From: Minwuia sp.
GTDB taxonomy: Bacteria > Pseudomonadota > Alphaproteobacteria > Minwuiales > Minwuiaceae
DNA: 64,000 bases
Reading direction: 5' to 3'
Assembly: GCA_029210175.1 (NCBI GenBank)
Contig: JARGPL010000007.1
Location: forward strand, 1 to 64,000
Below the pieces are notes generated by a model. It was not told where the DNA came from. It was given only the letters and a program-made list of their open reading frames with translations, and searched no databases. A program made the translations under genes and the position numbers. This document shows, one piece after another, positions 1 through 9,040 of the stretch. The first letter of the stretch is position 1; each line of letters begins with the position of its first letter.

Positions 1-2
1 GC

Positions 3-317
3 ATAGCGGTCATCAACCCGGGGGACAAGGGTGTCTGGACGGAGTTCGTTCATCTGGATCTCGAGCAGAAGACCCGCACCATCTGGAGTGACGGCAAGAA
101 CACGCACCTTTCGGAACCTGTGTTCGTCCCGGCGAACCCTTCTGCGGACGAAGGCGATGGCTGGATCCTGGGCACTGCCTTCCGGGTCGAAGAGAACCGC
201 AGCGACCTGCTGGTCTTTGCGGCCACTGATCTGGGGGCTGGGCCGGTCGCGACCGTCGAACTGCCCCACCGTGTACCGCATGGATTCCACGGCAATTGGG
301 TCCAGGCCACGACATGA
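3..317 (+). CDS. Carotenoid oxygenase family protein, C-terminal part (5' end outside window)
   Basis: The frame is open from the window edge to a TGA at 315-317, giving about 104 residues. The end of the protein reads VELPHRVPHGFHGNWVQ, which matches the C-terminal signature of the carotenoid cleavage dioxygenase / RPE65 family; the His in HGFHGNW is the last of the four iron-ligand histidines in this family. Such enzymes oxidatively cleave a double bond in carotenoids, apocarotenoids or lignin-type stilbenes using non-haem Fe(II). The substrate cannot be told from this fragment. The preceding stretch (GWILGTAFRVEENRSDLLVF) also fits a propeller blade of the family. It ends 56 bp before a convergent small gene. 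Confidence 0.85.
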   Translation: MAVINPGDKGVWTEFVHLDLEQKTRTIWSDGKNTHLSEPVFVPANPSADEGDGWILGTAFRVEENRSDLLVFAATDLGAGPVATVELPHRVPHGFHGNWVQATT

Positions 318-372
318 GCCACCGCCCCATTGGCGACTGGCTCATGTCGACAGAAAATCATTTCGGACGGTG

Positions 373-573
373 TCAGCCCAGCGTGGACTGAAGACCACCA
401 GACCTGTCCGTGTCCCCCACAAAGGCCAGCAAGGCGCGACGGCCACTGGTGCGTGACCTCCGGTTCCTGATCCGCGCCTTGTTCTGCTTTTCAAGGCGCT
501 GGGTCTCTTCCTCTTCGCGCTGTGCGGCACGATCTGCAGCGGACGTATCGGGACTGCCACCAAGCATTGCCAT
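373..573 (-). CDS. Small phage-like hypothetical protein (66 aa)
   Basis: Start chosen at the ATG at 571-573 because a GGAGAG ribosome-binding site lies just upstream; an in-frame upstream ATG at 630 lacks one. The protein is short, charged and Arg-rich: a Glu/Arg run at residues 15-35 is followed by RNRRSRTSGRRALL and a Gly/Thr/Ser-rich tail ending in SGGLQSTLG. This layout (MLGG start, acidic-basic helix, RR-rich centre, GDT and TLG tail) resembles small virion-associated proteins that sit among head-tail genes of tailed phages. I infer a link with the tail-fibre operon at 2674-6403, although two bacterial genes separate them. No catalytic motif is visible and function is unknown. Confidence 0.55.
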   Translation of the reverse strand: MAMLGGSPDTSAADRAAQREEEETQRLEKQNKARIRNRRSRTSGRRALLAFVGDTDRSGGLQSTLG

Positions 574-666
574 CTGGCTCTCTCCATTCTTATTGCCACG
601 TGCGCAGGATGCGCCCGTCTTTCGCGGCACAGAATATCCACGGAAACGAAATGAGTTCGTGGCCGT

Positions 667-1560
667 TCAGTTGAAGGCCTGAATCGCCTCGACCCCATCA
701 CACGCAAAGTCCGGCGCATCCTTCAGGAACGTGCTGTTTCCCTTCAATCGGCTCAATTTGCGAACCACCATACCCGGCGGATGAATTGCCCGGACAGTGA
801 ACGCGCCATCTTCAAAAAGCCGGTAATCGAGATAGCCGAGCATCGGCGCACCTGTACCGACCCTGAGACCGGATCTGTAAGCCGTTGCCGGCGCCCAGAT
901 GAACCGTGTCTGACCGAACCGGACATCCAGATACTTGTGCAGGTGCCCGCTGGCAACGAAGCGCACACCCGCGCGCAACAAACGCGAAAGCAAACGTGCC
1001 CGTGTGCCTGAGGGCACGAAGATGCTGCCCGGCACGCCCGCCGCGATCTGCCGCGCGAAGAACAACGGCTTGTGCAGGAAAACGCCGACTGGCCGCCCTG
1101 ACGTGCGGTCAAGTTGATCCGCCAGCCAGGCCAATTGCGCCGCCTCATCCGCCAGGCCGGTTCCTAGAATCTGCGAGTTGAGCCCAAGCAACCGCCAGCC
1201 ACCGAAATCTTCCGCCCACCAGTCAGGCCCGATGAGATCCCGGTACACCTTCAACCTCTCGATGGTCACCGGTTGGTCCATCATCGCAAAGCCTGGTTCC
1301 TCCCCGACATCATGATTTCCGGGAAGAACGCACATCCTGGACGCCGACATCCGATGCGCCGAAGCCGCAAATGCAATATCGGCAGGACGCGCCACGCCGT
1401 TGACGGTCAGGTCGCCCGTGTGAACAACCAGATCTGCTGACAACCTGTTGATGCACTTCATCGCCGCCAGATAGTTGTCGACGAAGAATGCCTGGCGGTC
1501 GCTCAGGTGCGTATCGGAGATCTGGACAAGCCGAAGGCCCTTCGATGCAGGATCAACCAA
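667..1560 (-). CDS. Metallophosphoesterase (CpdA-like calcineurin-type phosphatase)
   Basis: The calcineurin-like metal-binding blocks are all present, numbered from the chosen start: DTH at 16-18, GD at 49-50, GNHD at 81-84, His163 (LHKP) and GHLH at 205-208. The family hydrolyses phosphodiesters; the closest well-known type is the 3',5'-cAMP phosphodiesterase CpdA, but substrate is not proven by these motifs. About 297 aa. The ORF is open further upstream, but that would run far into the LLM oxidoreductase gene. A TTG at 1558-1560, which overlaps the upstream gene's stop by a few bases, is the likely start, although its ribosome-binding site is weak. It is probably translated with the upstream gene. 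Confidence 0.85.
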   Translation of the reverse strand: MVDPASKGLRLVQISDTHLSDRQAFFVDNYLAAMKCINRLSADLVVHTGDLTVNGVARPADIAFAASAHRMSASRMCVLPGNHDVGEEPGFAMMDQPVTIERLKVYRDLIGPDWWAEDFGGWRLLGLNSQILGTGLADEAAQLAWLADQLDRTSGRPVGVFLHKPLFFARQIAAGVPGSIFVPSGTRARLLSRLLRAGVRFVASGHLHKYLDVRFGQTRFIWAPATAYRSGLRVGTGAPMLGYLDYRLFEDGAFTVRAIHPPGMVVRKLSRLKGNSTFLKDAPDFACDGVEAIQAFN

Positions 1561-2455
1561 AGAGGTCGAATATCTCCGCCAAAGCCGTTGTCTGGCTGCC
1601 CCTCGTCGAGGATGGCACCAGAATGGGTGTCTTGATCCCGGCATCACGCCAGCGTTCAAGCCCCTCGAGAATGCGGGACGGCGGGCCCGACATGGTCACG
1701 CTGTCGAGCCACGCATCGCTCATCAGGGTTGGTATCCGGTCGAGATCACCTGCCTTCATGGCTGCTTCGATGTCCGTCATCTCCTCTTCAAATCCCGCTG
1801 CTGCCCAGTACTTGCGGTAATTCGGCAATTGCACATAGCGCGACAGGGTCTTGCGGTGGACGGCACGGCCAGCATCCACGTCGTCGTCGATCGCGGTTGG
1901 CACCATGGCAGCCGTGAAGAAGTCATCTTCCGCCGACCTGGCGCGCGCGGCGAGCTGACTGGCAACCGCGTCCCGCGGACCGTTGGCCCAGACCGCGCCA
2001 TCGCCAACCTCGACCGCCAGATCGAGCATGCGGTCACGCAGGGTGGCCAAGACGAGTGGCGGCAGTTCACCGACTTCCTTGGATGCTTCACGCATCTCGG
2101 CAACATAGGCCCGCATGTCCGCCACCGGCTTGCGGGTCTGAGGTACACCATGACGATCCAGCGACGGGGCATGGCTGATCCCCAATCCCATGCGGAACCG
2201 GCCCTTCGAGACCTCATGCAGAAACGCCGCATTGTCCGCCAGCTGGCGCGCCGACTGGAAATAGATCGGCTGGATCGAACTGCCGACGACCAGGCGCGTG
2301 GTTTCCTGCAGGATCGCCTGACAGAACGGCAGGCATGCAGATACGCTGGTAACGAAAACTCCAGCGAACTCCCTGCTTTCCGCCTCCTTCGCGAACTCGA
2401 TCATTCGGTGGCGACGCCCGGGCAGGGCGGCGATGGCAAGTGCGGGCTTCTGCAT
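1553..2455 (-). CDS. LLM class flavin-dependent oxidoreductase
   Basis: The 300-aa protein has the bacterial luciferase-like (LLM) TIM-barrel pattern: an N-terminal segment with KEAESREFAGVFVTSV, a central RFRMGLGISH followed by VPQTRKPVADMRAYVAEM, and a C-terminal GPPSRILEGLERWRDAGI. These enzymes use reduced flavin (FMN or F420) for monooxygenation or hydride transfer; the substrate cannot be predicted. The ATG at 2455 is preceded by GGGAGGA about ten bases upstream. It is the first gene of a two-gene unit with the metallophosphoesterase. The start lies about 220 bp from the divergent tail-fibre operon, with a palindrome in between. Confidence 0.85.
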   Translation of the reverse strand: MQKPALAIAALPGRRHRMIEFAKEAESREFAGVFVTSVSACLPFCQAILQETTRLVVGSSIQPIYFQSARQLADNAAFLHEVSKGRFRMGLGISHAPSLDRHGVPQTRKPVADMRAYVAEMREASKEVGELPPLVLATLRDRMLDLAVEVGDGAVWANGPRDAVASQLAARARSAEDDFFTAAMVPTAIDDDVDAGRAVHRKTLSRYVQLPNYRKYWAAAGFEEEMTDIEAAMKAGDLDRIPTLMSDAWLDSVTMSGPPSRILEGLERWRDAGIKTPILVPSSTRGSQTTALAEIFDLFG

Positions 2456-2562
2456 GACTGTTTGGTCCTCCCCTGGATCCTGATCGCTGCATGGTAGTCC
2501 GTTGCCACCCGAACAGACAATTGCGGCGTCACCAAAGAAATGCAGAACTCATTTCACAATCA

Positions 2563-2578
2563 TCGGTATTCATACCGA
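2563..2578. promoter_or_regulatory. Perfect 7+7 bp palindrome between divergent genes (putative operator)
   Basis: The site reads TCGGTAT-TC-ATACCGA, a perfect inverted repeat with a 2-bp centre. It lies in the 218-bp gap between the LLM oxidoreductase start (2455, minus) and the tail-fibre start (2674, plus), 95 bp before the latter. A short perfect dyad here fits a dimeric repressor site controlling one or both divergent promoters. No regulator gene is adjacent, so the protein that binds it is unknown. The rest of the gap shows nothing recognisable. Confidence 0.45.
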
Positions 2579-2673
2579 ACACAGGACTCAGCCGTTGAGA
2601 ACAGGGGATGCCGCAACGCAATGCGCGAACCGGATCATCGCTGAGACCAACGCATGATTGGAGCAGCACGACC

Positions 2674-5103
2674 ATGACGGAACACATCAAGATCAATGAT
2701 ACGGCCCCCCGTGCCGAATACGTTGGCGACGGAAGCACAACAGCGTTTCCCGCACCATTCCCCTTTCTTGCATCCGCCGATGTTCAGGTCTGGATCGCCA
2801 ATACCCGGCAAGAAGAGATCACTGACTACACAGTCTCGGGTGCCGGAGAAACGTACGGCGGAACCGTGACCTTCGGACTGGCCCCGGCCAGCGGCTCAAG
2901 TGTGGTGATCTACCGCCGGGCGGGCGTGAAACGGCTATCGGACTTTCTTCCCGGCGGCAGCCTGCGGGCAGATACTCTGAACGAGGAATTTGACCGGTTG
3001 ACCCTGTCGATGCAGGAAGTGACCACACGACTGGATCGGACGCTGCGACTGGCGGACCATGATGCAGGTCCGGTGCCCGCGTCGCTGCCGGCAGCTACTG
3101 CCCGTGCGTCACGCGTCCTTTCCTTTGATGCGGACGGGCAGCCGGTCGCCGGCCCGGAAACCAGCTCCCTTTCTGACATCGACGGTGCTGTCGTCGCAGC
3201 CACGGCAAGCGCGAGCGCGGCAGCGACGAGCGCCAGCGCAGCAGCCACCAACGCAGCCCTGGTCGGAGACATCGCGGCGCTGGTCCAGAACATCCCGGCC
3301 ACGACTGCGGCCACAGGTGATGGCGCGGAACTGATCTTTGCCCTCAACCAGACACCGATCGATGCCAGGGCCCTCGTGGTGAGCCTTGACGGGGTTCTGC
3401 AGCATCAATCCGCCTATTCTGTATCCGGATCTGACATCGCTTTCACTGCGGCGCCGCCAGCCGGTGTGGCAATCGAGGTTCGGGACCTTTCTTCCACAGC
3501 CATCGTCAATGCTGTGCATGTATCGGATCTCGCGGCCATTTCTGCCGCGATCTCGACCGTGGCGAATGTCGCCGGTGACGTGTCAGCGGTTGTGGCGAAC
3601 ACAGGCAGCATCACCGACGTGGCAGACGACCTGAACGGGGCGAATACCATCGCAGCGGCGGTCACGTCAGCAACGAGCGCCGCAGCCAGCGCAACCGCGG
3701 CCAGCGCGTCAGAAACCAGTGCAGGTGGATCCGCGGCAACTGCAGTATCCAGTGCCGCTGCTGCGACAGGCAGTGCATCTTCCGCAGCGGAGGCACAGAT
3801 CGACGCGGAGATTGCGAGAGCAGCAGCAGAAACAGCACAGACCGCCGCTGAAGCCGCTGAGACCAATTCCGCCTCAGCCGAGACGAACGCGGCATCAAGC
3901 GCCACTGCAGCGGCGGCAAGTGCGTCCAGTGCGGTTGCGGCGGTCGCCGGTGCATCCGGAGCAGCGGCACGTTCCGGGTTCCGCGCCCGCTTTGGCAAGA
4001 CGCCATCAGCTGTAATGTCGTTCCATCTTGGCGATGTGTCGAACCTCACCCTGACGCGGGCCACGGCTGGCTCCGCGATCAACGAACAGGGCGGGCCGGA
4101 AAACGCCGCGATCGACACCGCCCGGATCGAGCATGACATCGGCACCAGTGAACGGCTGGGCCTGCTGCTGGAACCGGCGGGCACCAATCTGGTGAAGCGC
4201 AGCAGTGATCTGTCCCATTCGGACTGGGTGACGAATGCCGGATATTTCACCCGCACCGGCGGCAAGGCGGACCCGGCGGGTGGCAGCACAGCCACTCGTC
4301 TCCGCTGCGACATCGCTGGCACGGGCGCAGCGAACAGCATTCGGCAGTTCACTGCATCCGGCGGGTTCACCGACGGCGAAATGAGTATCTGGGTTCGCCG
4401 GGTATCGGGAACGGGCCGTGTCCGGTTCCTTCGCATGAATGGCAACCCCGGCGGGACCGACATCACGGCTGACCTGACGTCAGAATGGCAGCCGTTCTCC
4501 TACGCAGATACATCAGGCGGTGGCGGCTTCCTGTACTTCGGCGTCATGCTGGAAGTGCTGAATGACGAGATCGACCTGGCCTTTGCCCAGTGCGAAGGCG
4601 ACAGCATCCACGAACTGGGTTCCTTCATCGAGACCACCACGGCCAGTGCCACGCGGTCTGCCGATCTGGCGACCGTCGACCTGTCTGTCCTGGCCGGATT
4701 CCGGCCCTCCGCATTCACGCTGATTGCCGACCTGACAATCAGGGGCGACGACGGCACGGCCCTGTCCATCGGCTTCGGTGCGTCTCAGGAGTGTGCGTTC
4801 GACGTCCAGTCCGGCGATCTGCACATCACCAGCAGCAACGGCCTGAACCTGACCGCCGCGTCCGGCCTCAGTCCGGGCGACCGGATACTGGTGGCGCTGC
4901 GCATGCAGGACGACAACGTGGCCGTGTCGGTCAACGGCGCGGCTGTCGTTACCGACACCAGCTACAGCATGACTGCCAATGCCAATGAATTGCAGTTGGG
5001 GTCCAACATTTCCGCTGCCGACCTGCTGGCCTGCGTGATCCACGAGGTCGCGTTCTTCGGCCCGCTTCCCGATGCAACGCTGGAGGCCATGAGCAATGTC
5101 TGA
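2674..5103 (+). CDS. Phage tail fibre protein (T7-type N-terminal domain, Ala-rich shaft, C-terminal binding domain)
   Basis: Of 809 aa, residues 1-130 carry the T7-like tail-fibre attachment domain (VGDGSTTAFPAPFPF, then a strand-rich part with VIYRRAG). Residues 215-290 form a second short module of phage-tail type (LVVSLDGVLQHQSAYSVSG). Two Ala/Ser/Thr-rich heptad-like stretches, about 171-192 and 328-434, look like the trimeric coiled-coil shaft of such fibres. The last 350 residues contain a jelly-roll-like region (LVKRSSDLSHSDWVTNAGYF) as in receptor-binding fibre tips. The ATG at 2674 is preferred over an upstream frame start at 2608 because GGAG lies ten bases before it and the homologous domain begins there. 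It heads a four-gene operon. Role: host or surface recognition in a phage or phage-derived particle. Confidence 0.88.
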   Translation: MTEHIKINDTAPRAEYVGDGSTTAFPAPFPFLASADVQVWIANTRQEEITDYTVSGAGETYGGTVTFGLAPASGSSVVIYRRAGVKRLSDFLPGGSLRADTLNEEFDRLTLSMQEVTTRLDRTLRLADHDAGPVPASLPAATARASRVLSFDADGQPVAGPETSSLSDIDGAVVAATASASAAATSASAAATNAALVGDIAALVQNIPATTAATGDGAELIFALNQTPIDARALVVSLDGVLQHQSAYSVSGSDIAFTAAPPAGVAIEVRDLSSTAIVNAVHVSDLAAISAAISTVANVAGDVSAVVANTGSITDVADDLNGANTIAAAVTSATSAAASATAASASETSAGGSAATAVSSAAAATGSASSAAEAQIDAEIARAAAETAQTAAEAAETNSASAETNAASSATAAAASASSAVAAVAGASGAAARSGFRARFGKTPSAVMSFHLGDVSNLTLTRATAGSAINEQGGPENAAIDTARIEHDIGTSERLGLLLEPAGTNLVKRSSDLSHSDWVTNAGYFTRTGGKADPAGGSTATRLRCDIAGTGAANSIRQFTASGGFTDGEMSIWVRRVSGTGRVRFLRMNGNPGGTDITADLTSEWQPFSYADTSGGGGFLYFGVMLEVLNDEIDLAFAQCEGDSIHELGSFIETTTASATRSADLATVDLSVLAGFRPSAFTLIADLTIRGDDGTALSIGFGASQECAFDVQSGDLHITSSNGLNLTAASGLSPGDRILVALRMQDDNVAVSVNGAAVVTDTSYSMTANANELQLGSNISAADLLACVIHEVAFFGPLPDATLEAMSNV

Positions 5104-5371
5104 CCATTTTCTGAAGTTCGATGATGCAGCAACAGGTGACGCTGCCCTGACGGCTGCGGGCATGGCCGGTGCCACAGGTCCGGGCTGGGCCGTGGAACGG
5201 CTCGGCACCCTGATGACCGCCGCCGTCATCGATGCCGATGGCGAAATTGTCGGCACACCGACAGCCCTGGCTGGTTATCACGTCAACATCCGTCTGATCG
5301 ATACAGCGTTGCCGTCAAACCTGACGGCCGTCGAAATCTTTCCCGTGACACCCAATCGGAGGTTTGCCTGA
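5096..5371 (+). CDS. Small tail-module protein (91 aa, unrecognised)
   Basis: The ATG at 5096 overlaps the end of the tail-fibre gene by eight bases, and its TGA overlaps the ATG of the next gene, so it is translated in a coupled operon. The 91-aa sequence is acidic in its first part (FLKFDDAATGDAALTAAG) and strand-rich afterwards, ending in FPVTPNRRF. It has no signal peptide, membrane segment or catalytic motif. I do not recognise a family. Its position immediately after the fibre gene suggests a fibre accessory, tip or assembly protein. Confidence 0.7.
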   Translation: MSDHFLKFDDAATGDAALTAAGMAGATGPGWAVERLGTLMTAAVIDADGEIVGTPTALAGYHVNIRLIDTALPSNLTAVEIFPVTPNRRFA

Positions 5372-6054
5372 TGTCGTTGACCCGACCAGGCCGCATGATG
5401 TTCACCAGCATCGGTGACGCGGCAGAAAAAAGCGTGGGAACAGCTTCTGACCAATTGCCCACCAACAATGATATTCCGCAGCCTGCATTTGCCACACAGG
5501 CAGAGGCCGAGGCCGGGGCGATTTCGGTTAGGCACATGTCTCCACTTCGAACTGCGGACGCAATCTCTGCGCTGGGCCTGGGCCTGCGTCGGGGTGGATC
5601 GCTGGACCTTTCCTCGGGCACCGGCGGGATCATCACCAACCTGGGCGGAGTCGCGGATCCCGACGTGATCGAGATCCTGTTTGCCGGTGTTTCCGTTTCC
5701 GGCAGTGACCATCTGCTCGTCCGGCTTGGTGATTCTGCCGGGGTGGAGACCGAAAGCTACCAATCAGCCAGCGGCGCAAGCAGCGCCAGCGGTACCTTCG
5801 CCAGCAGCAGCACGGGACTGGTGATCTATCAGGGGGGTTCGGGCCACTGGAACGGATGCATGCAGCTCCGCCGCGTGACCGGCAATCTCTGGATATCCAG
5901 CCATGCGATTCAGATATCGGCCACAGGCGGCATTGCTGCCGGGGGAGGTCAGAAAGCGGTCACCGCAACGCTGGACAGGATCGCGATCGCGGTCAGCGGT
6001 GCGAACACGTTTGACGGGGGTTCCGTTCAGGTCCTTGCGGGCAAGGCGGGTTGA
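5371..6054 (+). CDS. Phage tail-associated protein with ATQAEAEAG...MSPLRT motif
   Basis: The 227-aa protein contains ATQAEAEAG followed by RHMSPLRTADAI (about residues 41-65), a motif common in tail-fibre and tail-spike proteins of tailed phages. The remainder is Gly/Ser/Thr-rich with a strand pattern (SGASSASGTFASSS) and ends in SGANTFDGGSVQVLAG, similar to the last strand of phage C-terminal sandwich domains that carry tip or decoration functions. Its start overlaps the preceding stop (TGATG). I infer a second fibre or a fibre-tip subunit. No enzymatic motif is visible. Confidence 0.75.
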   Translation: MSLTRPGRMMFTSIGDAAEKSVGTASDQLPTNNDIPQPAFATQAEAEAGAISVRHMSPLRTADAISALGLGLRRGGSLDLSSGTGGIITNLGGVADPDVIEILFAGVSVSGSDHLLVRLGDSAGVETESYQSASGASSASGTFASSSTGLVIYQGGSGHWNGCMQLRRVTGNLWISSHAIQISATGGIAAGGGQKAVTATLDRIAIAVSGANTFDGGSVQVLAGKAG

Positions 6055-6055
6055 A

Positions 6056-6403
6056 ATGGACACCGCAACCAAGCGAGGCCGGATGAAGGACAGGATCATG
6101 CTTGATTGGACATCATTGCTGCCCATCGGCCTCTTCCTCGCGGCACAGGTCATAGGTGCAGTCATTTGGGCGGCCACGTTCGAGGCCAAGGTGGCAAGCA
6201 TGTCTGCGCAACTGGAGGCACGGATCGTCGCCCTGGAAGCCAATGTTGCCGACAACGCCACGATAAGACGCCGGATGTGGGACCGTATCGAGCGGCTGGA
6301 CCGGACCAGTACAACGGTTGATGAGCGGACCCGCATCATGGCGGAGCAACTGACCCGAATCTATCAACAGCTCATCCGTGTTCAGCAGGATCAGAACGAC
6401 TGA
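6056..6403 (+). CDS. Small membrane protein with coiled coil (phage lysis/spanin-like candidate)
   Basis: The ATG at 6056 follows the previous stop by one base; the 115-aa frame could also begin at later methionines. One hydrophobic segment (about residues 20-42, PIGLFLAAQVIGAVIWAATF) is followed by a long charged helical part (residues 45-113) with heptad spacing and many Gln/Arg/Glu, predicted to be a coiled coil. Small proteins of this shape occur next to fibre or lysis genes in podophages (holin accessory or Rz-like). No lipobox or endolysin is present nearby, so the lysis role is only a suggestion. It is the last gene of the operon, ending before a strong hairpin. Confidence 0.65.
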   Translation: MDTATKRGRMKDRIMLDWTSLLPIGLFLAAQVIGAVIWAATFEAKVASMSAQLEARIVALEANVADNATIRRRMWDRIERLDRTSTTVDERTRIMAEQLTRIYQQLIRVQQDQND

Positions 6404-6433
6404 CTGTTCCGGGAATAGATGACTACTCCCTGC

Positions 6434-6497
6434 CGATCTCACCCGACCCATGCCCGGCGCTTTTCAAGCAGGTGCCGGGTGCGGGTCGGTGAGATCG
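6434..6497. terminator. Long inverted repeat between convergent genes (likely bidirectional terminator)
   Basis: Arms at 6434-6458 and 6474-6497 are complementary over about 24 bp with few mismatches (CGATCTCACC... pairing with ...GGTGAGATCG), around a loop of about 15 bases. It sits exactly between the end of the phage-like operon (6403, plus) and the end of the DUF2461 gene (6512, minus). The position suits a bidirectional terminator, although no clear U-run flanks either side. Confidence 0.6.
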
Positions 6498-6511
6498 CAT
6501 CTTGGATGCTG

Positions 6512-7201
6512 TCAAGGTCGGGGCCGAAAGACATGGCCGACCAGCCAGCGGTGCAGCGGCAACATCGGCCTGAAAACCGCGATCAGATAATCGATACATT
6601 CCGGACTGAAGACCCTGTCGGCCTGCGACAGATCTCCTCGTACGACCAGGCCCCGATACCGGTACCAGTCTGCGCCAGGCGAATCTGTCTGGTCCCTGGG
6701 CACACGCTTCAGCGCCGGATCGCCCAATACCATTCCGGCACCTGCCCGTGCCTCCGAAACAGCAGTCTCGAGTTCGTCCAACGCGGTCTGGTCATGCAAT
6801 GCATCATGATAGCGTTGCAGTTCAGGCTTGCCGAACATCCAGTGGCCAACCCCTGCACCGACCCCATCTGGCCGTATGACAAGGTGAAGACCTGAAGAAG
6901 CCATCGGCTTGTCACCTTCCCAGAAGACCATGTGCAACCGACACTTGTAGGGGGACTTGTCGGCAGAAAACCTTACATCTCGATTGATGCGCCGAATGGA
7001 GCCATTGATTCTCGGTTCGGCACGAATGGCAGGAAGCTCCGCCCGCAGCGCGCTGCCCAGGCGGCTGACCAGCTCCTCGGCCGGTGCGAGGAAATCCGAC
7101 TGATAGGCTGAGCGATTGGCGTCAAACCAGGCCTTGTTGTTTTCAGCTTCCAGTTCCGCCAGAAATCCGCGCGTTTCCCGTGGAACACCCTGATAGGTCA
7201 T
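6512..7201 (-). CDS. DUF2461 family protein
   Basis: The 229-aa protein has the DUF2461 pattern: FLAELEAENNKAWFDANR near the N-terminus, then RINRDVRFSADKSPYK and GLHLVIRPDG-type segments (about residues 75-125), and a C-terminal VFSPECIDYLIAVFRPMLPLH. The family is widespread and of unknown biochemical function. The ATG at 7201 is chosen because GGGAGAG stands a few bases upstream; the frame is open a further 27 codons. It is divergent from the D-aminoacylase-family gene at 7343. Confidence 0.85.
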   Translation of the reverse strand: MTYQGVPRETRGFLAELEAENNKAWFDANRSAYQSDFLAPAEELVSRLGSALRAELPAIRAEPRINGSIRRINRDVRFSADKSPYKCRLHMVFWEGDKPMASSGLHLVIRPDGVGAGVGHWMFGKPELQRYHDALHDQTALDELETAVSEARAGAGMVLGDPALKRVPRDQTDSPGADWYRYRGLVVRGDLSQADRVFSPECIDYLIAVFRPMLPLHRWLVGHVFRPRP

Positions 7202-7342
7202 CGCTCTCTCCCGATCATCTTCCACGGCCCGCGATGGCCCCGACGGACCATTCTGTGCCTCGCTGTCGCCACCAAAGCACACTTGCCTGCGCCGGAACCA
7301 ATGTCACACTGCATTGTTGTCTGGTTCAGGGGAGTCGAAGAC

Positions 7343-9040
7343 ATGACCGAGTACGATCTTATCATCCGCAATGCCCGCATTCACGATGGCCTGGGCGGCG
7401 CCGAGCGCCGTGGTGACATGGCGGTTCACAAGGGCCGGATCGCCGCCGTTGGCGATGTGTCCGGGACCGGCAGGACTGAGATCGATGCAGAGGGTCAGGT
7501 GCTCATGCCTGGTGTCATCGACATTCACACCCACTACGATGCCCAGCTTACCTGGGACCCGACAGCTTCGCCCTCACCCGCGCTGGGCGTGACAACGGTC
7601 GTCATCGGCAATTGCGGTTTCGGCATAGCACCGGCCACGCCGGACGCGCGCGATACCCTGCTGGCCAACCTGTCCGTCGTGGAGGCGATGTCACTGGACA
7701 GCCTGCATGCGGGTGTCGACTGGTCATTCGAAAGTTTCGGCGAGTACCTGGATCTGATCGACAGCAAGCGCCCGTTTCCCAATGTCGCCGCCCTCGCCTC
7801 CCATTCCGTCATGCGGACAGTCGTGATGGGCGCAGACGGATCGGAGCGCGCGGCGACAGCCGATGAACTGCAACGGATGCAGGACCTCCTGGCAGATGCG
7901 ATGCAGTCCGGAGCCATAGGTTTCGGGTCATCGACGTTCGAGAACCATTTCGGTGCGGAAAACAAGCCCGTGCCGTCCCGCCTCGCGGAGTGGGATGAGT
8001 TTCGTGCCTTTGCCCGGACGATGGGGGAGGCCGGTGGCGGCATCATGATGGCCACCTGTGGCGACCGCATGGACGTTCCCTTCCTGGGGGAATTGTCCGA
8101 CATTTCCGGCGGCACCACGATCTACGCCCCGATGCTGCATTTCTCCAACCAGCCAGACCGCGCCATCGGCATCGCCAGGGCCTGTGCGGAACAGCGCGGT
8201 CAGGGGCGCGCGGTCTTCGCGCAGTGTTCCTGTCAGCCGCTTTCGATGGACTTCACACTGGCCTCCGCCTACCCGATGCTGACCATTGATGGCTGGCCGG
8301 AGAGCGCGCCGGTCGAGCAACTGAAGGCAGCCTTCGCAGACCCGAAACGCCGCCAACGCATTCGCGAGGCGCTGAAGGTGCCGTCGGGCACGCGGATTTT
8401 CAATGGTCACTGGTCGCGCGTGGAGGTCACCATCGCCCGTGACTCCGAGAATGCGTCACTGGAAGGCAGGACAATTGCCGACATAGCGACGGAGCGTGAT
8501 GCCGATCCGCTGGATGTCTTCTTCGACCTGGCCCTGTCGGAAGGGCTGGAAACGACCTTCACTGCCAAACTGCTGAATGTGGAAGAGGATGCGGTCGGCG
8601 AACTGCTTTCCATGGACGGCAACCTGGTCAGCCTGTCGGACGCTGGAGCACATCACACGTTCTTCTGCGACGCCGGGTTCGGCATGCATTTCCTGGGGCA
8701 CTGGGTGCGTGAGCTGGGGGTCTTCGACCTGGCCAGCGCTATCGTGAAGCTGACGTCCGAACCGGCTGAGGTCTACGGGCTGACCGGGCGCGGTTCGCTG
8801 ATACCAGGCAATGCGGCGGACTTCATCCTGATCGACCCGGACCTGATCGGCATCAGCAAGACCCAGCGCCTGAAGGACCTGCCTGCCGGTGGGGAGCGCC
8901 TGGTCCGCAGTGCACCCGGGCTGCGCGGCACCTGGGTCAATGGCGTGCAGGTCTTTGATGGCGAGGGCTACTGCGAGGTTACCGGGCCGGGTGACGTGAT
9001 CCGCCGCGACCCCCGGCAACTGACCGCAGCGGCAGAGTAG
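7343..9040 (+). CDS. N-acyl-D-amino-acid deacylase family amidohydrolase
   Basis: The 565-aa protein belongs to the amidohydrolase superfamily, D-aminoacylase branch. It begins with DLIIRNARIHDGLGG, has the metal-binding HxH in DIHTHYD (about residues 64-70), GNCGFGIAP, GAIGFGSSTFENHFG, and the C-terminal NAADFILIDPD-type strand before a short beta-sandwich. Known relatives hydrolyse N-acyl-D-amino acids or related amides with a zinc-type centre; the exact substrate is uncertain. The ATG at 7343 is preceded by GGGGAG and starts the conserved domain; the open frame begins 20 codons earlier. The MscS gene follows after ten bases. A decayed paralogue lies at 40117-40581. Confidence 0.85.
   Translation: MTEYDLIIRNARIHDGLGGAERRGDMAVHKGRIAAVGDVSGTGRTEIDAEGQVLMPGVIDIHTHYDAQLTWDPTASPSPALGVTTVVIGNCGFGIAPATPDARDTLLANLSVVEAMSLDSLHAGVDWSFESFGEYLDLIDSKRPFPNVAALASHSVMRTVVMGADGSERAATADELQRMQDLLADAMQSGAIGFGSSTFENHFGAENKPVPSRLAEWDEFRAFARTMGEAGGGIMMATCGDRMDVPFLGELSDISGGTTIYAPMLHFSNQPDRAIGIARACAEQRGQGRAVFAQCSCQPLSMDFTLASAYPMLTIDGWPESAPVEQLKAAFADPKRRQRIREALKVPSGTRIFNGHWSRVEVTIARDSENASLEGRTIADIATERDADPLDVFFDLALSEGLETTFTAKLLNVEEDAVGELLSMDGNLVSLSDAGAHHTFFCDAGFGMHFLGHWVRELGVFDLASAIVKLTSEPAEVYGLTGRGSLIPGNAADFILIDPDLIGISKTQRLKDLPAGGERLVRSAPGLRGTWVNGVQVFDGEGYCEVTGPGDVIRRDPRQLTAAAE

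What the first reader, a model, noticed from the sequence alone, without database searches (positions are those of the whole stretch)
2674..6403. Orphan four-gene T7-type tail-fibre operon without any other phage structural genes
The four genes overlap or touch (fibre; 91-aa; 227-aa with MSPLRT motif; membrane/coiled-coil protein), so they form an intact, translationally coupled operon with codon use and G+C like the neighbours and no frameshifts. No terminase, portal, capsid, integrase or lysozyme gene is present on either side. This could be a domesticated receptor-binding module (for a gene-transfer agent, tailocin or adhesin) or the right end of a decayed podoprophage. The intact reading frames argue for selection.
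Basis: partly seen in the sequence, partly recalled or inferred. Interest (0 to 1): 0.62.

Follow-up and report, generated by a model that had tools for sequence, protein, structure and literature searches.

The report
Scattered podovirus-derived gene-transfer-agent genes in Minwuia
The lone tail-fibre genes are one of about six scattered pieces of a tamed short-tailed virus whose shell, DNA-packing, tail and lysis genes are kept by every sequenced relative in the genus and carry shared control sequences, which points to an unrecognised kind of DNA-delivery particle (gene transfer agent).

Summary
The four-gene fibre operon is real, intact and under purifying selection, but it is not an orphan. 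It is one block of a dispersed, podovirus-derived particle gene set found in all 7 genus genomes held (Minwuia, Alphaproteobacteria) and not detected in 2 other genera of the family for the five markers searched genome-wide. The remaining blocks sit alone among housekeeping genes: terL; portal; p66-scaffold; capsid-p87-tubeA-tubeB-p132 (about 4 kb left of the fibre, just beyond the contig end where the window starts); p80 (inside the window); endolysin-holin. Gene order within blocks matches T7-like phages MEP301 and Hodr. Host and phage-derived trees agree, and dN/dS is 0.035-0.21. Two DNA motifs mark the promoters: exact ACTCATTTC (14 hits in 888 kb, 12 upstream of element genes) and exact CGGTAnnnnTACCG (8 hits, all 8 at element promoters). 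The fibre promoter carries both. Best reading: a domesticated short-tailed gene transfer agent with a dispersed genome, unlike RcGTA and BaGTA, whose capsids are HK97-type. A clustered relative occurs in 16 of 20 other alphaproteobacterial genomes examined, with the same host-gene neighbours across four families. DNA packaging and transfer are inferred, not shown.

The parts
373..573 (-). p80: small basic phage-like protein (starts MAMLGG), found in 7 of 7 genus genomes
   Evidence: orthologues in 7 of 7; a homologue lies next to the portal gene of provirus contig L208 (E 1e-6)
648..656 (-). motif 1 (ACTCATTTC) 83 bases upstream of p80
2547..2555 (+). motif 1 (ACTCATTTC) in the fibre promoter; also upstream of terL and portal in this genome
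2564..2577 (+). motif 2, palindrome CGGTATTCATACCG; the only exact match in 219.6 kb of this genome scanned
2674..5103 (+). T7-type tail fibre, 809 aa: conserved N-terminal tail-attachment domain (about 2713-2985), Ala/Ser-rich shaft, variable C-terminal receptor-binding part
   Evidence: Phage_T7_tail; N-terminal 307 aa of the six orthologues 50-68% identical to the window's, C-terminus variable
5096..5371 (+). 91-aa fibre-associated protein (PHROG 18574, function unknown)
   Evidence: E 4.7e-12
5371..6054 (+). 227-aa probable distal fibre tip (SVRHMSPLRTADAI motif); at this locus in 4 of 7 genomes, so a swappable part
   Evidence: the role is inference
6056..6403 (+). 115-aa membrane-anchored coiled-coil protein, probable lysis accessory; in G004 and G006 the equivalent gene is followed by a GTA_holin_3TM holin
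1553..2455 (-). flanking host gene (LLM-class oxidoreductase), not part of the element; fixes the locus
   Evidence: adjacent to the fibre in 7 of 7 genomes
7283..9040 (+). flanking host gene (amidohydrolase), not part of the element; fixes the locus
   Evidence: downstream of the module in 7 of 7 genomes

Best explanation
The operon is the receptor-binding and lysis-accessory block of a domesticated, dispersed podoviral element that most likely makes a gene transfer agent (GTA): a short-tailed particle that packages host DNA. Steps shown here by sequence: the host kept a T7-like virion gene set (terminase large subunit with intact motifs, portal, scaffold, capsid, both tube proteins, fibre, and in most genomes an endolysin and a 3TM holin); the set is split into blocks at fixed chromosomal places; it is vertically inherited with the host; it is under purifying selection; and its blocks share two promoter motifs. 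Steps inferred: one or two regulators switch the blocks on together in some cells; scaffold and capsid assemble on the portal; TerL fills heads with chromosomal DNA, because the element's own genes are too scattered to be co-packaged; tubeA and tubeB form a stubby tail, and the fibre's T7-type N-terminus docks on it while the variable C-terminus and tip bind sibling cells; holin and endolysin lyse the producer.
For: Presence: portal, TerL, tubeB and scaffold each in 7 of 9 genomes searched, i.e. 7 of 7 of the genus and 0 of 2 of other genera of the family, at one locus each apart from a second partial portal hit in G005; fibre in all 6 other genus genomes and 0 of those 2. Capsid, p87, tubeA, p132, p66 and p80 in 7 of 7 genus genomes in the stretches fetched. 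Fixed sites: the fibre module lies between the same host genes in 7 of 7. Block-internal order follows MEP301 and Hodr. Selection: dN/dS capsid 0.035-0.079, portal 0.039-0.109, TerL 0.055-0.149, fibre 0.163-0.206, against 0-0.171 for five host genes, with overlapping dS. Co-diversification: concatenated host (2037 aa) and phage-derived (2365 aa) trees share all three fully supported splits, with similar lengths. TerL Walker A GHGVGKS, Walker B FDEA and GVDVA in all 6 full-length copies. Shared promoter motifs: 12 of 14 exact ACTCATTTC and 8 of 8 exact CGGTAnnnnTACCG hits in 888 kb lie upstream of element genes. GTA_holin_3TM and GH108 endolysin. No HK97 capsid in 6 of 7 genus genomes, so no RcGTA-type element competes as the owner of the fibre.
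Against: No particle, packaged DNA or transfer has been observed. No small terminase or large internal virion proteins were recognised; these were not searched genome-wide. In the window's own genome the only 3TM holin found, with its GH108 endolysin, lies in an unrelated siphoprophage region (C15), so its lysis step is unexplained. Portal and TerL of Minwuia are not of the same lineage as those of the clustered relatives, so the set is mosaic. The exact motifs are absent from G004 and G006 (only a one-mismatch motif 2 at the fibre), and motif 1 is degenerate at the portal and fibre of G001-G003. The motifs were first seen by eye in the same data.
Confidence: 0.75

Rival explanations
1. Remnant of an old podoprophage that was broken up by rearrangement and is decaying; the conserved pieces are chance survivors.
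For: Blocks are scattered, and no integrase or replication genes were recognised with them. In G003 terL lies directly beside a tRNA-Gly gene, a typical attachment site.
Against: At least 11 genes are kept in 7 of 7 genomes (G005 terL is cut by a contig end), dN/dS is 0.035-0.21 for the main genes, dS is host-like, and promoter motifs are shared.
Confidence: 0.07
2. Virion parts co-opted separately for other tasks, for example an adhesin from the fibre, or interference with other phages' packaging, not one particle.
For: Single-gene loci far apart: 1.6 Mb between fibre and portal in G003. Fibre and tips vary between genomes.
Against: A near-complete head-tail complement is kept together in every genome, and terL, portal, fibre, endolysin and p80 share motif 1 while scaffold, capsid and fibre share motif 2. 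No signal peptide or anchor was noted on the fibre (by eye, not computed).
Confidence: 0.08
3. A particle for something other than host-DNA transfer: a DNA-filled killing particle, or a helper kit for a satellite or plasmid.
For: The cargo is not shown; the variable fibre ends would suit killing of relatives as well as DNA delivery.
Against: The closest formal analogue with dispersed, vertically inherited head genes and terminase is a GTA; no satellite was looked for.
Confidence: 0.1

Closest known systems
RcGTA (Rhodogtaviriformidae), Rhodobacter capsulatus
   Same: Dispersed over several loci (five in R. capsulatus per PMC9662315, passage read), vertically inherited with the host, under selection; a holin of the GTA_holin_3TM family and a GH108 endolysin (that RcGTA's endolysin is of this type is recalled).
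   Different: RcGTA is a long-tailed particle (recalled) with an HK97-type capsid; this set has a PF19821/PHROG 3437 capsid, PF12236 portal and T7-type tube genes.
BaGTA (Bartogtaviriformidae), Bartonella
   Same: Alphaproteobacterial, host-fixed phage-like genes.
   Different: HK97-MCP (PMC9662315 passages) and genes in one region of about 79 kb; no T7-type set was mentioned in the passages read.
FpGTA, Faecalibacterium prausnitzii
   Different: From a distant gut commensal; no sequence comparison was made here; two loci instead of about six.
Methylophilales phage MEP301, Pelagibacter phages EXVC031P Hodr and HTVC034P
   Same: Homologous portal, scaffold, capsid, p87, tubeA, tubeB and fibre in the same order in MEP301, most of them in Hodr; HTVC034P annotated in the same order.
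   Different: Free 34-35 kb phages with further genes and large genes between tubeB and fibre in MEP301 and HTVC034P; capsid identity 29% (MEP301) and 46% (Hodr).
IMG/VR provirus L208 (UViG_2894471438_000002, 34 kb)
   Same: Best match to the Minwuia portal among the 80 contigs (E 1e-134), with p66, scaffold, capsid, tubeA, tubeB and p80.
   Different: Clustered, with long ORFs after p132 where internal virion proteins would be.

Membership tests
Gene transfer agent (criteria of PMC9662315, passage read) | caudoviricete-derived proteins that form a tailed particle | tested here: inconclusive
   The gene set is present and intact; particle formation was not observable.
Gene transfer agent (criteria of PMC9662315, passage read) | genome fully endogenised in the host, often across multiple loci | tested here: met
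   About six blocks at separate sites among host genes; fixed in 7 of 7 genomes for the fibre locus.
Gene transfer agent (criteria of PMC9662315, passage read) | vertical inheritance and co-diversification with the host | tested here: met
   Congruent concatenated trees, 7 genomes; overlapping dS.
Gene transfer agent (criteria of PMC9662315, passage read) | own genome cannot be fully packaged | tested here: met
   Blocks lie up to 1.6 Mb apart in the complete genome G003, far beyond any head of this capsid type (inference).
Gene transfer agent (criteria of PMC9662315, passage read) | mostly random host DNA packaged | not testable with these tools
   Needs particles.
Gene transfer agent (criteria of PMC9662315, passage read) | packaged DNA delivered to other cells | not testable with these tools
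   Needs transfer assays.
RcGTA-like (Rhodogtaviriformidae) | HK97-type capsid and RcGTA-type head-tail cluster | tested here: not met
   PF05065 capsid in 0 of 6 other genus genomes and only in a siphoprophage of G000; PF03237 terminase in 0 of 7.
T7-like temperate or lytic phage | contiguous genome with replication or integration genes | tested here: not met
   Blocks are separated by host genes in the stretches read. An integrase search was not run genome-wide.
Tailocin | tail only, no capsid or terminase | tested here: not met
   Capsid, scaffold, portal and terminase conserved in 7 of 7.

The most novel reading that the evidence does not exclude
Alphaproteobacteria hold a second, ancient, class-wide GTA family of T7-like podoviral descent, older than several families: usually a 12-14 kb cluster beside a divergent S24-peptidase regulator, catalogued today as hundreds of small proviruses, and in Minwuia broken into a co-regulated, genome-wide set of single genes.
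Probability: 0.5. Interest if true: 0.93.

Novelty: new variant of a known kind. Interest (0 to 1): 0.86.

Why it matters
The alphaproteobacterial GTAs described in the papers read rest on HK97-type ancestors. A podoviral GTA would be an independent domestication, with a different ejection machine and a different terminase, and would add horizontal-transfer capacity to lineages where RcGTA is missing. The Minwuia version shows how far a viral genome can dissolve into its host while staying one regulon. The two promoter motifs make the regulon testable, and catalogued 12-14 kb 'proviruses' in viral databases may need reclassification.

Tried and rejected
RcGTA-type owner of the fibre: rejected, because no HK97 capsid was found in 6 of 7 genus genomes and the one in G000 belongs to a siphoprophage with its own tail genes.

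Free virus as owner: the search for related loci with the fibre N-terminus gave 16 candidate stretches in viral contigs and none confirmed; in the phage collection no record covers 80% of the fibre and the 30 rows listed cover at most 20%.

Shared k-mer screen of upstream regions: 8- to 10-mers in at least three loci per genome did not exceed shuffles clearly. The motifs were then seen by eye and tested by whole-stretch counts and a 9-mer ranking in G000, where ACTCATTTC ranks first among the 1675 distinct 9-mers of seven upstream windows (uncorrected p 1.1e-9). In that call's control, 1 of 1000 random sets of seven windows reached a count of 4 and 119 reached 3; its list of best p-values contains zeros, probably from overlapping random windows, and was not used.

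Class-wide tubeB hits are not all of this type: 4 of the 20 examined (G363, G172, G269, G281) have a weak or no capsid match. The 20 were my choice out of 101 positives, for long contigs and for families with several positives.

The portal tree does not place Minwuia with the clustered relatives, and both trees carry long-branch warnings. Rfam: nothing in window 1-8000.

Literature: eight searches, listings only except for passages read in PMC9662315, PMC3610622, PMC7947584, PMC10783043, PMC10386132 (also abstract and outline), PMC10127595 and PMC12946183. No T7-like or podoviral alphaproteobacterial GTA was seen in these; most subscription papers are outside that library.
Full report
WHAT IS THERE. 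The four ORFs are present at the stated place, touching and on one strand. The first is an 809-aa fibre with a Phage_T7_tail N-terminus; the second matches PHROG 18574; the third has no family match at the limits used; the fourth is a membrane-anchored coiled-coil protein (the anchor read by eye). Composition is like the neighbours. The window starts at a contig end.

SAME PLACE IN EVERY RELATIVE. A search of 60 related genomes, the window's own included, found fibre homologues in 18. All six other genomes of the genus have one, with the N-terminus conserved; the two genomes of other genera of the family have none. In all seven genus genomes the module sits between the same LLM-class oxidoreductase and the same amidohydrolase. 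Inside the module the middle genes are swapped: G005 lacks the 91- and 227-aa genes, and G004 and G006 carry a GTA_holin_3TM holin after the membrane protein.

THE REST OF THE PARTICLE. Genome-wide searches of nine genomes (seven genus, two outside) gave: T7-type portal PF12236 in 7 of 7 and 0 of 2; large terminase 7 of 7 and 0 of 2; tail tubular protein B, PHROG 376, 7 of 7 and 0 of 2; scaffold 7 of 7 and 0 of 2. HK97 capsid PF05065 was found in only one genus genome, inside a siphoprophage, and in one of the two outside. In the stretches fetched, capsid (PHROG 3437, Pfam PF19821), p87, tubeA, p132, p66 and p80 are also in all seven. Comparison with MEP301 and Hodr shows homologues in the same block-internal order.

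DISPERSAL. In the complete genome G003 the endolysin-holin pair is at 1.289 Mb, terL at 1.326, tubeB-tubeA-p87-capsid at 1.342-1.346, fibre at 1.350, scaffold at 2.822 and portal at 2.951 Mb. In G006 the tube-capsid, fibre, scaffold, portal and terL blocks lie within about 70 kb, still separated by host genes. In the window's genome the blocks lie on contigs C5 (fibre, p80), C18 (capsid-tubes), C9 (portal), C29 (terL) and C25 (scaffold). C18 joins the window's left end: residues 37-398 of a carotenoid oxygenase are on C18 and 410-505 on the window. The capsid is therefore about 4 kb from the fibre, and its apparent absence is a contig-edge effect.

SELECTION AND INHERITANCE. NG86 dN/dS over up to five genome pairs: capsid 0.035-0.079, tubeB 0.071-0.115, portal 0.039-0.109, TerL 0.055-0.149, scaffold 0.065-0.123, fibre 0.163-0.206; five host genes 0-0.171; the holin pair G000-G005, which compares a prophage copy with a chromosomal one, reaches 0.44; dS ranges overlap (G001 capsid and G005 TerL were compared over partial length). 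Concatenated host and phage-derived trees share the splits G004+G006, G000+G005 and G001+G002+G003, all at 100% bootstrap, with similar branch lengths. TerL keeps Walker A, Walker B and the GVDVA motif (named from memory as a nuclease motif) in six of six full-length copies.

ONE REGULON. Reading upstream regions side by side showed two motifs. Exact ACTCATTTC occurs 14 times in 888 kb of stretches from seven genomes. Twelve hits lie upstream of element genes: fibre, terL, portal and p80 in G000; terL and endolysin in G001, G002 and G003; portal and endolysin in G005. The two others are inside the G000 fibre gene in antisense and at G001 C13:16864. Exact CGGTAnnnnTACCG occurs eight times, all at element promoters: the fibre in five genomes and p66 in three; the capsid promoter keeps a version with two mismatches in six of six readable genomes, and the fibre promoters of G004 and G006 one with one mismatch. 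In G000 ACTCATTTC ranks first of 1675 9-mers. Orthologous hits are not independent, and the motif was picked from these data; even so, in G000 alone four of five hits sit at four separate genes. The fibre promoter in the window carries both motifs.

MECHANISM. A head-tail-fibre kit with lysis genes in most genomes, vertically inherited, selected, co-marked and too dispersed to package itself, fits the published GTA criteria that can be tested by sequence (PMC9662315, passage). Packaging of random DNA and its delivery remain untested. The missing small terminase and internal virion proteins, and the missing chromosomal holin in G000, are open points.

WIDER FAMILY. PHROG 376 hits 101 of 385 genomes and 82 of 276 genera of the class sample, so T7-type nozzles are common there. 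I examined 20 of the 101: 16 have a capsid matching the Minwuia profile at E 3.1e-79 or better. Their genes form a compact cluster, where readable: small ORFs - portal - p66 - scaffold - capsid - p87 - tubeA - tubeB - one small ORF - fibre - terminase of PHROG 38. In nine of the 20 a divergent S24-peptidase regulator lies beside the cluster, and dihydroorotate dehydrogenase plus an EAL-domain gene recur next to it in four families, f29, f41, f52 and f105. Other flanks are NAD kinase, Lnt and MurJ. Many of the 80 kept are 12-14 kb with this same order; that several come from isolate genomes is read from their identifiers, from memory. In the capsid tree Minwuia nests with these relatives, sister to Hodr (85/95); in the portal tree it does not. 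I therefore claim the class-wide family only as the bold reading.

COMPARISON. RcGTA and BaGTA have HK97-type capsids (and from memory for RcGTA). FpGTA was called the first podovirus-like GTA-like element in January 2026. Hardies et al. describe podoviral prophages of about 40 kb in Rhizobiales with tubeA and tubeB, and the terms 'gene transfer' and 'domesticat' do not occur in that text. Bradyrhizobium S06B-Bj makes podophage-shaped particles whose DNA covers the host genome evenly: a lead only.

Noticed in passing
G000:C15, about 14-43 kb (L004, L005): A siphoprophage with HK97 capsid, portal, TerL, tape measure, J-like protein and its own GH108-like endolysin and 3TM holin; its capsid family was not found in the other six genus genomes.
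   Followed up: partly
L037:15238-18408 (G000:C9:41238-44408) and G001:C30: A second lone spike-like gene of about 1050 aa whose C-terminus resembles the fibre's (PHROG 5939), with matching host neighbours in two genomes; no exact promoter motif found there.
   Followed up: partly
G000:C5:75790-76263: Lone homologue of a small protein that lies upstream of the portal in clustered relatives (E 2e-13), next to what look like a transposase and an integrase near the contig end.
   Followed up: partly
L098:9899-11598 (G003): terL lies about 80 bases from a tRNA-Gly(CCC) gene, a typical prophage attachment site; in G000 the same tRNA is about 3.3 kb away.
   Followed up: no
IMG/VR loci L185-L264: Many 12-14 kb 'proviruses' with one uniform gene order and no integrase noticed; possibly misclassified domesticated elements.
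   Followed up: partly
MT838907.1 (L265): A 5-kb unverified 'Bacteriophage sp.' scaffold from human faeces groups inside the alphaproteobacterial capsid clade (with f90 genomes).
   Followed up: partly
L208 (IMGVR 2894471438): A 34-kb provirus that looks like a full-length relative of the Minwuia ancestor, with large ORFs after p132.
   Followed up: partly
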